A stretch of DNA of 64,000 nucleotides from Amblyornis subalaris (taxonomy: Eukaryota; Chordata; Aves; Passeriformes; Ptilonorhynchidae): positions 1-64,000 of the forward strand of contig JACAXG010000201.1 of the NCBI GenBank assembly GCA_018881555.1, in the 5' to 3' direction. The notes under the pieces were generated by a model that saw nothing but the letters and a program-made list of their open reading frames with translations, ran no database searches and was not told the origin of the DNA. This document shows, piece after piece, positions 38,436-60,986 of the stretch. Position 1 is the stretch's first letter, and each line of letters begins with the position of its first letter. The translations under genes and the position numbers were made by a program.

Positions 38436-39367
38436 TAAGACCACGTGGCAGTTTTTAGGTGCAGGGTTTCCTCACACACCTCTCCAGACAGCATATGAGC
38501 ATCTTAAGTGAATATATTTTGGTCTGGGCATGATCGTGTTCAGATTCAGACTTCACCAGTGCAGCAGAGGTGAAGCACTAAGGGAAGAGGAGTTTTGGGG
38601 AAAATGGAAGGATCCTCAACAGAGGGCTGCAAGATGCTGAGGATTTGGGAATGTGGGCAGAGGTTATAATGGATTGAAATAGCAGGTTGAGTGAAGAATA
38701 GAAAAACTGGAGATGCTGAGTTACAAGATAATTGGAAAGAGTTGATTCCAGGCCATTGGGAAAGGAGTTATTTCTGAGTTCAGGACTCCTGTGAGCTCAT
38801 CTCAACAGAAGATAAAAAGCCTGTGCAATGCAGCATTATGGTTATGGTTTCATGTGATTTTTGACCCCAGATATCACCCTGACTTAATCCATTTTGATAA
38901 ACATACCATGGAACCAGCTTCCCAGGGCAGATCCACTGTTTACACATCTGTGATACCCAGCTCAGCCATGACTCAGCCACCAGCAATGATGTTCTGACCT
39001 TAATAATATCACTGTGAGTCTTCTTAATGAGGACATAATTTCACCCCAGAGGCCAATTCATTAATTAGCATGACCGGCTATNCTGTCATTGGGCATATGA
39101 AGTGGGTAGTAACTTGGTTTATATACCGAGCAAATATGTGCTGAGCAAATATGGATTCAACTGCATGTATAATGACAACAGACAGGGCCATAAAAGTCTG
39201 GCAGCAAGAGTGAACAGAGATGAGTGTAGCTCCTCACTCCAAACCTAATTCAGTGCTGGTGGTACTTGCTTGTTGTAGAGTTGTCTAAAATCAATGTCCA
39301 GGGAAACACTTGTTGAATTAGTTGTTTATTTCACATGCTGCATGAAGTTGTGTGAGAGTTATAAAAT
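38436..39367. other. Unassigned intergenic sequence
   Basis: About 0.9 kb upstream of the ATRN-proximal CR1 pair; no gene or element is recognised. Confidence 0.4.
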
Positions 39368-39586
39368 ATCATGGAATAGAGCATCCTGTGTGGGAAAGGA
39401 CCCACAAGGATCATTCAGTCCAATTCCCAGCTCTGCACAGGACACCCCAACAATCCCACCCTGTGCATCCCTGGGAGCATTGTCCAAATGCTCCTGCAGC
39501 TCTGGCAGCCTTGGGGCTGGGACCATTCCCTGGAGAGCCTGTTCAGTGCCCATCACCCTTGGGGGGAAGGACATTTTCCTGATTTA
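39368..39586 (-). mobile_element. CR1 LINE 3' fragment, second subfamily
   Basis: Antisense copy: ATATCATGGAATAGAGCATC, 'cccacaaggatcattcagtc', 'gagcattgtccaaatgctcc', 'gggaaggacattttcctgat'. It belongs to the subfamily seen in sense at 13759 and 54991. Confidence 0.9.
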
Positions 39587-39636
39587 CACATAAACTTCCC
39601 CCTTCAAACCTAGTTTAAAATCCTTTCAATGAGGGC

Positions 39637-39958
39637 ATAACTCCCTGACAAGAGGGGGCAGCAAGGTGGGGATGGGGCTCTGCTCCCAGGGAACAATGCA
39701 CAGGACGAGAGGAAATGGCCTCGAGCTGTGCCAGGGGAGGTTTACTTTGGACATCAGAAGGAATTTCTTCATGGAAAGGGTGGTCAGGCATTGGAAAGGG
39801 CTGCGCAGGGAGGTGGTAGAATCCCCATGCCTTCAGATGTCCAAGGAAGGCCTGGACGCGGCACTCAGTGCTCTGGGCTGGTGACCNGGGGGGGATCAGT
39901 CACAAGTTGGACTCGGTGATCCCGGAGGTTTTTCCAGCCCCAGTGATTCTGTGATTGT
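39637..39958 (+). mobile_element. CR1 LINE 3' fragment truncated at a duplication boundary
   Basis: Sense CR1: ACTCCCTGACAAGAGGGGGC, 'gagctgtgccaggggaggtt', 'aggaatttcttcatggaaag', 'ttggactcggtgatcccgga', tail GATTCTGTGATTG. Its left edge coincides with the boundary of the duplicated block rather than with an ordinary CR1 truncation. Confidence 0.92.
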
Positions 39959-40272
39959 TACTCCTATTAGCCTTCCTTTAACCAGGGGCAGTGCTTGTGC
40001 TGTAGCTGTGCCAGCTGCTGCTTGCTCACCTGTAATATTTAACTAATGGGGAGCAGTAAAGGGGCTTTAATTTTACAGCACGATTTTAAACCGACTAATT
40101 TCCTGGGAAATGCCATTTCATGGTTTGGGAATTGCCGTGTGCTTTAAACTCTCTGCTTGTTAAATTTGCTGAGATGAGAAACTCACCCCTAAATGCAGAG
40201 TTGTGCAGCTGGAGGATCTAAGCAAGAACTTGTTCCCCTCCCTCTAACCCACGGACTGTAATTAGTGGAACC
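39637..40272 (+). repeat. Duplicated segment, ATRN-proximal copy
   Basis: This ~636-bp block recurs in the same orientation at 60386-60986. It contains a CR1 3' end (39637-39958, tail GTGATTCTGTGATTG) and about 310 bp of non-CR1 sequence ending ATTAGTGGAACC at 40272, right where the ATRN CpG island begins. On the left, the CR1 is cut off abruptly at ATAACTCCCTGACAAGAGG, where the intronic copy continues into more CR1. From stretches read side by side I estimate mid-90s percent identity, apart from a ~35-bp deletion in the intronic copy and small indels. Confidence 0.92.
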
Positions 40273-40411
40273 CTCCCGTGAGTCTGTGATTGCCGGGCCC
40301 GCCCCAGCCCTGCCGCCATGGCCGTGGGGTGACGCCACTAGCCCCGCCCTCCCGCTTCCCCCCCCACTCGCGGCCACCGTAGCGGGATCGGCGGAGGCCC
40401 CGCGGCGGCCG
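40273..40411 (+). promoter_or_regulatory. ATRN: ATRN CpG-island promoter / 5' UTR region
   Basis: GC content rises sharply at 40273 and stays high to ~40960. A GC box (CCCCGCCC at 40342-40349) lies upstream of the start codons, with further Sp1-type sites at 40435-40450. There is no TATA box in the expected position, consistent with dispersed CpG-island initiation. The transcription start cannot be fixed from sequence. Confidence 0.7.
40318..40332 (+). promoter_or_regulatory. Upstream ORF of four codons in strong Kozak context
   Basis: GCCGCCATGG surrounds an ATG at 40318. It opens ATG GCC GTG GGG and stops at TGA (40330-40332), 79 nt before the first in-frame ATRN start. The ATRN starts have C at -3, so this uORF has the better context. 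It matters only if transcription begins upstream of 40318. Confidence 0.5.
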
Positions 40412-40716
40412 ATGGTCCGCGCTGCGCCGCCGTCCCCCGCCCGCCCCGCTCCCACCCGGCAGCGGCCGCAGATGGCGCGGCGGGGACCGGGCAGGCGGGG
40501 CGGGAGGTCACCGGCGCCGCCGCCGCCGCCGCTGCTGGCGCTGCTGCTGCTGTTGGTGCTGGGCCCCGCCGCCGCCGCCGGCGAGGAGGTGGCGGTGTCC
40601 AAGGAATGCGACAAGCCGTGCGCCAACGGCGGGCGGTGCCAGCCGGGCACCGGGCAGTGCGAGTGCCAGCCCGGCTGGGTGGGCGACCAGTGCCAGCACT
40701 GCGGGGGGCGCTTCAG
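40412..40716 (+). CDS. ATRN: Attractin exon 1 (signal peptide and first EGF-like module)
   Basis: Attractin is a large type I membrane glycoprotein (CUB, EGF, kelch, C-type lectin, PSI and laminin-EGF domains). In mammals it is the mahogany product, which modulates agouti-melanocortin signalling and is needed for myelin upkeep. This exon gives ~101 codons from ATG 40412; an in-frame ATG at 40472 is an equally plausible start. A basic Pro/Arg-rich lead is followed by a Leu-rich core and AAAAG, a signal peptide with cleavage near residues 55-58. The first EGF module follows: KECDKPC, NGGRC, GTGQCEC, GWVGDQC and the terminal CQHCGGRF. The exon ends after CTTCAG at a GTGAGA donor, splitting the Arg codon (phase 2). 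The spacing and wording of the EGF module match ATRN better than the paralogue ATRNL1. Downstream exons are outside the window, so the gene is partial here. Confidence 0.92.
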
Positions 40717-40832
40717 GTGAGACCCCGCGGGGCGGGGGGGTGGGGACGTGTCCGGGGGCGAGTGCCAGCACTGCGGGGGGCGCTTCAGGTGAGACCCCGC
40801 GGGGCGGGGGGGTGGGGACGTGTCCGGGGGCG
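40689..40832 (+). repeat. Exact 72-bp tandem duplication across the exon 1/intron 1 boundary
   Basis: Copy 1 (40689-40760) holds the last 28 nt of exon 1, the splice donor and 44 nt of intron. Copy 2 (40761-40832) repeats it without a mismatch, including the terminal AGTGCCAGCACTGCGG exon sequence and a second CAG/GTGAGA donor at 40788/40789. The donor context is therefore present twice. Confidence 0.93.
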
Positions 40833-40938
40833 GGGGGCGGAGGGCGGGGACGTGTCCGGGGGCGGGGGGCGGAGGGCGGGGACGTGTCCGGGGGCGGGGG
40901 GCGGAGGGCGGGGACGTGTCGGGGGGCGGGGACCTGTA
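40817..40938 (+). repeat. G-rich 32-bp minisatellite with G-quadruplex potential
   Basis: GACGTGTCCG anchors recur at 40817, 40849, 40881 and (as GACGTGTC) 40913, an exact 32-bp spacing, followed by a degenerate GACCTGT at 40931. Between anchors lies GGGGGCGGGGGGCGGAGGGCG-type sequence, offering four or more G-runs per unit on the coding strand. Confidence 0.9.
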
Positions 40939-41265
40939 GGGTCGGCGTGGACGGGGATTGAGGGGCTGGTTCGGGGAACGGGGCTGAAAGGCTGGCTCGG
41001 AGCATGGGGGTCAGGGGCTGGTTTGGGGAACGGAGGGGAATGTGTGGCAGCCGCATCAGGGGTGGAGATGAGCGATAGGGCAAGGGGGAAAGGAGGGGAC
41101 ACGGCAGTGCCTCGGTGGCCCGGGTCAGGCTGCTCAAAGGAGCACCTGAGGGAAATAGGGAGGTGGGTAGGGAAAGCTGGTTTGGGGACTCAAAGGGGGT
41201 GGGAGGTTGAGGGTGTTCAGGGATGAGTGTGGGGGCAGTGGGGTCGTGGTGCAAGGGGAAGGGCT

Positions 41266-59744: not shown

Positions 59745-59770
59745 AGGGTTAGGGTTAGGATTAGGGTTAG
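59745..59770 (+). repeat. Short interstitial telomere-like repeat
   Basis: GGGTTAGGGTTAGG, then ATTAGGGTTAG: about four TTAGGG units with one degenerate unit, on the plus strand, immediately 5' of a hairpin and a long CR1. Confidence 0.88.
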
Positions 59771-59800: not shown

Positions 59801-60675
59801 TGTTGTCCCAGTCCTATTTAATACCTTTATTGTTGATCTGGATGAGGGGATCGAGTGCCTCACCCTCAGTGAGTTTACAGACAACATGAAATTGTGCAGA
59901 AGTATCAGTCTGTGGGAGGGCAGGAAATTCTGCAGAGTGGCTGTGGCAGGCTGGATTGATGGGCTTAGACCACCAGGGTGAGGGTCAGCAAGGCCACATG
60001 CCAGGTCCTTGTACTTGGGTCGCAGCAACCCCAGGGAGCACTCCAGGCAGCAGAGGGGCTGGAAAAGGCCCTGCGGATGCTGTTGACAGCGGCTGGACAT
60101 GTGCCCAGGTGGGCAAGAGGCCGGTGGGCAAGAGGCCAGTGGTCCCTGGGCTGTCTCAGCACTGGGGGGGCAGCAGGGCTGGGGCAGTGCCCGTCCCTGT
60201 GCTGGCGCTGCTGGGGCACCTCCAGTGCTGGGGGCAGTTCTGAACCCCTCAGTTCAGCANGGACATTAAGGAGCTCGAGCGTGTGCAGGGCAGGGAACAG
60301 AGCTGGGGAAGGGGCTGGAGCACCAGGGGCGGCTGAGGGGACTCAGCCTGCAGAAAAGGAGGCTGTGGGGGGACCTTCTCACTCTATAACTCCCTGACAA
60401 GAGGGGGCAGCAAGGTGGGGATGGGGCTCTGCTCCCAGGGAACAATGCACAGGACAAGAGGAAACGGCCTCGAGCTGTGCCAGGGGAGGTTTACTTTGGA
60501 CATCAGAAGGAATTTCTTCATGGAAAGGGTGGTCAGGCATTGGAAAGGGCTGCGCAGGGAGGTGGTAGAATCCCCATGCCTTCAGATGTCCAAGGAAGGC
60601 CTGGACGCGGCACTCAGTGCTCTGGGCTGGTGACCAGGGGGTGTTTTCCAGCCCCAGTGATTCTGTGATTCTGTT
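59801..60675 (+). mobile_element. Long CR1 LINE (end of ORF2 plus 3' UTR)
   Basis: The longest CR1 in the window (~875 bp), sense. It starts in the 3' part of the reverse-transcriptase ORF ('tttattgttgatctggatga', 'gacaacatgaaattgtgcag', 'gccaggtccttgtacttggg'), passes 'tgctgggggcagttctgaac' and 'gagcgtgtgcagggcaggga', and ends GATTCTGTGATTCTG. It is non-coding now (frameshifts, stops, an N at 60260). A 15-bp tandem duplication lies at 60108-60137. Its last ~290 bp are shared with the duplicated block at 39637. Confidence 0.93.
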
Positions 60676-60986
60676 ACTCCTATTAGCCTTCCCTTAACCG
60701 GGGGCAGTGCTTGTGCTGTAGCTGTGCCAGCTGCTGCTTGCTCACCTGTAATATTTAACTAATGGGGAGCAGTAAAGGGACTTTAATTTTACAGCACGAT
60801 TTTAAACCGACTAATTTCCTGGGAAATGCCATTTCATGGTTTGGGAATTGCTGTGTGCTTTAAACTCTGCTTGTTAAACTTGCTGAGATGAGAAACTCAC
60901 CCCTAAGTGCAGAGTTGTGCAGCTGGAGAATCTAAGCAAGAACTGCTTCCCCTCTCTCTAAACTAGGGATTGCAATTAGTGGAACC
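60386..60986 (+). repeat. Duplicated segment, intronic copy
   Basis: Same-orientation partner of 39637-40272. Here the CR1 at the left boundary continues without a break into upstream CR1 sequence (…GGACCTTCTCACTCTATAACTCC), so this copy looks ancestral. Homology ends at ATTAGTGGAACC (60986), after which the sequence is AT-rich rather than CpG-rich. Confidence 0.92.

What the first reader, a model, noticed from the sequence alone, without database searches (positions are those of the whole stretch)
39637..40272. ATRN-proximal sequence duplicated ~20.7 kb away inside ATRN intron 1
39637-40272 and 60386-60986 match in direct orientation over a CR1 end plus ~310 bp of non-CR1 sequence. The first copy ends exactly where the ATRN CpG island begins. 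CR1 continuity across the left boundary exists only in the intronic copy, implying intron-to-promoter duplication. It may have replaced or displaced native promoter-proximal sequence and could mediate non-allelic recombination deleting exon 1. It could instead be an assembly artefact, though the substitutions and a ~35-bp indel between copies argue against a simple one.
Basis: partly seen in the sequence, partly recalled or inferred. Interest (0 to 1): 0.75.

Follow-up and report, generated by a model that had tools for sequence, protein, structure and literature searches.

The report
Small duplication beside ATRN promoter
A roughly 600-base piece of an old repeat plus its neighbouring unique sequence occurs twice in this probable bird genome, once inside the first intron of the ATRN gene and once right next to its promoter; it is real in the assembly and most likely arose by ordinary DNA break repair, so it is a local curiosity of a known kind.

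Summary
In detail: window 39637-40272 and 60386-60986 match in direct orientation, 581 of 638 columns identical, with 17 true substitutions in 598 gap-free columns. ATRN is confirmed with a recalled human probe: exon 1 near 40.4-40.7 kb, exon 2 near 75.1 kb, so the second copy is in intron 1. The non-CR1 part gave 2 matches in the 1.08 Gb assembly, these two. The first copy stops where the CpG island starts. In 260 kb of the contig it is the only listed pair of at least 150 bp with under 5% substitutions. The CR1 was already old when copied: 23 of 217 scored columns carry differences from its subfamily shared by both copies, against 1 and 0 private ones. This fits DNA-level copying and argues against CR1 retrotransposing with its flank. 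Intron to promoter is the best-supported direction, not proven: no related bird was available. A CR1-tail-like motif lies 5 bases past the right end; repair of a break in an earlier promoter CR1, templated by the intron CR1 and overrunning into its flank, would explain it. Effects on the promoter or exon 1 are untested. Modest interest.

The parts
39637..39956 (+). promoter copy, CR1 3' part (starts inside the CR1, ends with its ATTCTGTGATT tail)
39957..40272 (+). promoter copy, non-CR1 part; 2 matches found in the assembly, itself and the intron copy
40231..40259 (+). cluster of 8 of the 17 substitutions between the copies, close to the right junction
40278..40291 (+). CR1-tail-like motif 5 bases beyond the right end, possible relic of a CR1 that stood here before
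59978..60385 (+). older CR1 continuing to the left of the intron copy; relatives align across 60386 in one piece
60386..60672 (+). intron copy, CR1 3' part, with a 35-base deletion at about 60642 relative to the promoter copy and to CR1 relatives
60673..60986 (+). intron copy, non-CR1 part, in ATRN intron 1
40273..41000 (+). CpG island of the ATRN promoter and exon 1
40412..40716 (+). ATRN exon 1 coding part from the first in-frame ATG; splice donor GT at 40717

Best explanation
It is a small dispersed direct duplication made at the DNA level: the 3' part of an old CR1 in ATRN intron 1, together with about 315 bases of unique sequence behind it, was copied some 20.7 kb upstream to the edge of the ATRN promoter. 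Shown: two diverged copies, a CR1 that was already degenerate when copied, ends without alignable sequence beyond them, and CR1 continuity in the intron. Inferred: direction intron to promoter, and copying during break repair. Of the break-repair routes I favour repair of a break in a CR1 that already stood at the promoter, with the intron CR1 as template: synthesis ran through the CR1 into its flank and rejoined at the old promoter CR1's tail, whose relic would be 40278-40291. That sub-step is inferred (about 0.4); templated insertion between two unrelated ends is the alternative route. It needs no function, and I have no evidence for one.
For: The copies differ by 17 substitutions in 598 columns, and the non-CR1 part was found only at these two places. 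23 of 217 scored CR1 columns show differences from the subfamily shared by both copies, 1 is private to the promoter copy, 0 to the intron copy: the source CR1 was old. Divergence of the intron CR1 from the consensus is the same left (24 of 231) and right (23 of 217) of the breakpoint, and its distances to 23 relatives correlate between the two sides (Spearman 0.57, p 0.005), as for one insertion. Beyond both ends similarity is not above shuffles (right 285, left 444 of 1000 shuffles score as well). A CR1-tail-like motif lies 5 bases past the right end; of 95 such sites in 260 kb, 79 are preceded by repeat sequence with at least 3 relatives, taken as CR1 3' ends; the other 16, this site among them, give 0.0008 expected per 25 bases of one strand.
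Against: No related bird could be compared, so the ancestral state is unknown. The correlation also reflects near and far CR1 subfamilies, so it is weak support for a single insertion. The tail-like motif was noticed after looking, has one mismatch in 13, missed a stricter cut (15 bases, at most 1 mismatch), and by eye lacks a CR1 hairpin before it, so the chance figure is not formal. The substitution cluster could mean an older duplication later homogenised by gene conversion, junction error, or local mutation.
Confidence: 0.65

Rival explanations
1. The copying went from promoter to intron: a truncated CR1 and native promoter-side sequence were the source, and a longer CR1 in intron 1 was converted and extended by its flank.
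For: Would also leave a seamless CR1 in the intron. The promoter copy keeps the 35 bases that the intron copy lost, so if the intron was the source that loss must be later.
Against: Needs two CR1 insertions that happen to be equally diverged from the consensus on both sides of the breakpoint, and a conversion tract that stops at the truncation point of the promoter CR1.
Confidence: 0.15
2. Retroposition: an RNA of the intron CR1 read through into its 3' flank was reverse transcribed and inserted at the promoter, truncated at its 5' end (3' transduction).
For: 5'-truncated CR1 start, sense orientation, and a CR1-tail-like motif near the 3' end.
Against: The CR1 was about 10% away from its subfamily consensus when copied. 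CR1 mobilisation is described as needing a 3' hairpin and a microsatellite, potentially the recognition site of the reverse transcriptase (PMC8665684, passages), with an 8-bp microsatellite at the very end for priming (PMC5729268, passages), but here the copy runs 315 bases past them. No third copy of the flank was found.
Confidence: 0.08
3. Assembly artefact or chimeric join that placed intron sequence at the promoter.
For: The window has 36 single-base N letters, one inside the promoter copy; no reads could be seen.
Against: 17 substitutions, several indels, unrelated flanks on both sides, no run of N near either copy.
Confidence: 0.07
4. A timing variant that can hold together with the best explanation: the duplication is older, and most of it was later homogenised by gene conversion between the copies; only the last 45 bases kept the old divergence.
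For: 8 of 17 substitutions lie in 29 bases at the right end (7 of 200000 random placements).
Against: The left end has no diverged margin; beyond 40272 no residual similarity above shuffles. Junction error would give the same pattern.
Confidence: 0.15

Closest known systems
Small intrachromosomal dispersed duplications made by break repair or template switching
   Same: Short copied tract, same chromosome, tens of kb apart. Templated insertions linked to MMBIR are described in PMC8421209 (abstract and passages); insertions of a segment into a non-adjacent locus in PMC5120786 (start of abstract in the listing).
   Different: The insertions that PMC8421209 detects are small inverted copies of templates within 100 bp; here the copy is direct, about 600 bases and from 20.7 kb away, and one end lies inside a repeat.
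Ectopic gene conversion between copies of one repeat family
   Same: Conversion is unidirectional transfer between highly homologous sequences (PMC3966225, start of abstract); both places hold the same CR1 stretch in the same orientation.
   Different: About 315 bases of flank were carried along, and it is not shown that the promoter held a CR1 before.
LINE 3' transduction
   Same: A 5'-truncated LINE end followed by unique flank at a new place.
   Different: The source CR1 was long degenerate, and CR1 is described as needing its own 3' end (PMC8665684, passages).

Membership tests
Dispersed intrachromosomal duplication | Two copies of otherwise unique sequence on one chromosome with different flanks | tested here: met
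Dispersed intrachromosomal duplication | Derived copy absent in an outgroup | not testable with these tools
   states that the assembly has no relatives here
Repeat-guided ectopic gene conversion | Homologous repeat present at the recipient before the event | tested here: inconclusive
   only a CR1-tail-like motif at 40278-40291
CR1 retroposition with 3' transduction | Source element close to its family consensus when copied | tested here: not met
   23 of 217 shared derived columns
CR1 retroposition with 3' transduction | Insertion ends in the CR1 octamer tail | tested here: inconclusive
   degenerate tail-like motif 5 bases past the homology
MMBIR templated insertion | Microhomology at the junctions | tested here: inconclusive
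   0 identical bases beyond either end, but this follows from where the alignment stops; the recipient before insertion is unknown, so overlap inside the copy cannot be measured

The most novel reading that the evidence does not exclude
Old, immobile CR1 copies act as landing pads: break repair between them overruns the repeat and carries unique intron sequence to a new place, here up to the edge of a CpG-island promoter, leaving a CR1 tail relic as the only scar. If general in birds this would be a homology-seeded way to move non-coding sequence into promoters.
Probability: 0.3. Interest if true: 0.4.

Novelty: new member of a known kind. Interest (0 to 1): 0.22.

Why it matters
If real in the population, about 630 bases of probably intron-derived sequence now end at the start of the ATRN CpG island, and two direct repeats, 97% identical apart from gaps, flank exon 1, so regulation or rare exon-1 deletion could be affected. 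Neither effect was shown. Its main use is as an example of a short duplication near a promoter whose age and direction a single related genome could settle.

Tried and rejected
Chance similarity between two CR1 copies: rejected, because the other self-matches listed in the window are about 59-88% identical (gaps counted) while this pair is 91% (97% without gaps) and includes unique sequence. Recent CR1 retrotransposition: disfavoured by shared old differences. A repeat family in the 315 bases: not found. Homology beyond either end: not above shuffles. A source elsewhere in 260 kb for the diverged last 45 bases: best other hits are the intron copy, then 17 bases or fewer. RNA folding of the CR1 3' region of both copies: no better than shuffles (z -0.36 and -0.35), uninformative. 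Rfam: 0 matches at gathering score. Exact identity beyond the ends is 0 by construction and was dropped as evidence.

Literature: five searches were answered; only asked for attractin. Among the rows listed (12 of 61, 12 of 6,503, 12 of 19, 10 of 40, 10 of 119 papers) no title or abstract start concerned an ATRN promoter duplication in birds. This does not show that none is in print.

A wider background rate from other contigs was planned and not obtained, so the rate rests on 260 kb of one contig.

Full report
The window is C150:1-64000 of a 1,083,935,972-base assembly in 820 contigs; C150 has 1,141,610 bases. The name CR1 rests on recall and on the octamer tail ATTCTRTG given in PMC8665684; no repeat library was available.

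Observation. 39637-40272 and 60386-60986 match plus/plus, 581 of 638 columns identical, 18 mismatch columns including an N, 39 gap columns. The 17 true substitutions over 598 columns give 2.9% corrected distance; without the 29-base cluster, 9 over 569, 1.6%. With recalled avian neutral rates of about 2 to 3.3 per billion sites per year this means a few million years, a rough figure. The non-CR1 part (39960-40272) gave 2 matches in the assembly from 2 candidates; the tool warns that counts are lower bounds. In the 260 kb of contig C150 that I held, this is the only listed pair of at least 150 columns with under 5% substitutions.

Gene context. A recalled human attractin probe matches the + strand of C150 in 16 pieces: exon 1 at 40601-40717 (82% identity), the next at 75099-75188, and 14 further ones up to 111497. 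Exon 1 encodes an EGF-like stretch (Pfam EGF_laminin 21.7 bits against a cut-off of 21, EGF 21.6 against 21.5; the 60 solved structures listed are mostly EGF-domain proteins, best a laminin at 2.9e-06, none named attractin). So the second copy lies in intron 1, and the first ends at the CpG island: CpG observed/expected rises from 0.25 (39957-40272) to 0.95 (40273-40472).

Which copy is the source. The intron CR1 runs on to the left: 10 of 14 relatives with under 28% substitutions align across 60386 in one piece. Against their consensus the intron CR1 differs at 24 of 231 columns left of the breakpoint, and both copies together at 23 of 217 to the right. Columns with fewer than 4 relatives, under 60% agreement or a gap were left out; one of the two substitutions in the CR1 body, at 39707, was thereby not scored. 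High identity begins where the promoter loses CR1. This favours intron to promoter. It is not proof: conversion of a longer intron CR1 by a truncated promoter CR1 would look alike. The 35-base gap is a deletion in the intron copy, as 27 of 27 spanning relatives (of 65 hits) keep 29-37 of the 37 bases, so it happened after the copying if the intron was the source.

How it was copied. The copies share 23 derived CR1 columns and have 1 and 0 private ones, so the CR1 was already old. CR1 mobilisation is described as needing a 3' hairpin and a microsatellite (PMC8665684, passages; PMC5729268, passages), and here the copied tract runs 315 bases past them. Retroposition is therefore unlikely, and a DNA-level route is preferred. 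Five bases past the right end lies GTGAGTCTGTGATT, close to the CR1 octamer tail. In 260 kb, 95 sites match the tail in 13 bases with at most one mismatch; 79 follow repeat sequence with at least 3 relatives, and 16 do not, this one among them, giving 0.0008 expected in 25 bases of one strand. I looked there only after seeing the sequence, and a stricter cut (15 bases, one mismatch) does not list it, so this is a lead. It suggests that a truncated CR1 stood at the promoter, that a break in it was repaired from the intron CR1, and that synthesis overran into the flank before rejoining at the old tail. Templated insertion between two unrelated ends remains the plain alternative; microhomology could not be measured because the recipient before insertion is unknown.

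Results against this reading. Eight of 17 substitutions lie in 40231-40259, which 7 of 200000 random placements match; junction error, later conversion of the inner part, or local mutation could each explain it. By eye there is no hairpin before the tail-like motif. Similarity beyond the ends is not above shuffles (right 285, left 444 of 1000). The Spearman correlation (0.57, 23 relatives) partly reflects near and far CR1 subfamilies.

Consequences. The repeats flank exon 1 in direct orientation, with a longest identical block of 170 bp. Recombination between them would remove exon 1, but nothing here shows that it happens. Whether native promoter sequence was displaced cannot be told without an outgroup.

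Verdict. Interest is modest.

Noticed in passing
window 40689-40832: A perfect 72-base tandem duplication spans the end of ATRN exon 1 and its splice donor, giving two identical donors (40717 and 40789); read in frame, use of the second would run into a TGA stop at once. It could be real or an assembly slip in GC-rich sequence.
   Followed up: partly
window 40801-40931: A 32-base GC-rich tandem array, about 4.1 copies at 95% matches, overlaps the end of that duplication and runs on in intron 1.
   Followed up: no
window 39361-39602: The end of another CR1-like repeat in opposite orientation lies about 35 bases left of the promoter copy.
   Followed up: partly
window 59749-59770: Short run of telomere-like TTAGGG units left of the intron CR1.
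   Followed up: no
window, 36 positions: 36 isolated single-base N letters, one inside the promoter copy at 39887; their cause (quality or heterozygosity) is unknown.
   Followed up: no
C150 about 63-185 kb (L003 to L015): A younger CR1-like group with pairwise substitutions from 5.3% up to the 10% at which I cut the list, much younger than the CR1 in the finding.
   Followed up: no
window 40412 and 40472: Two in-frame ATG codons in ATRN exon 1, 60 bases apart; which one starts translation is open.
   Followed up: no
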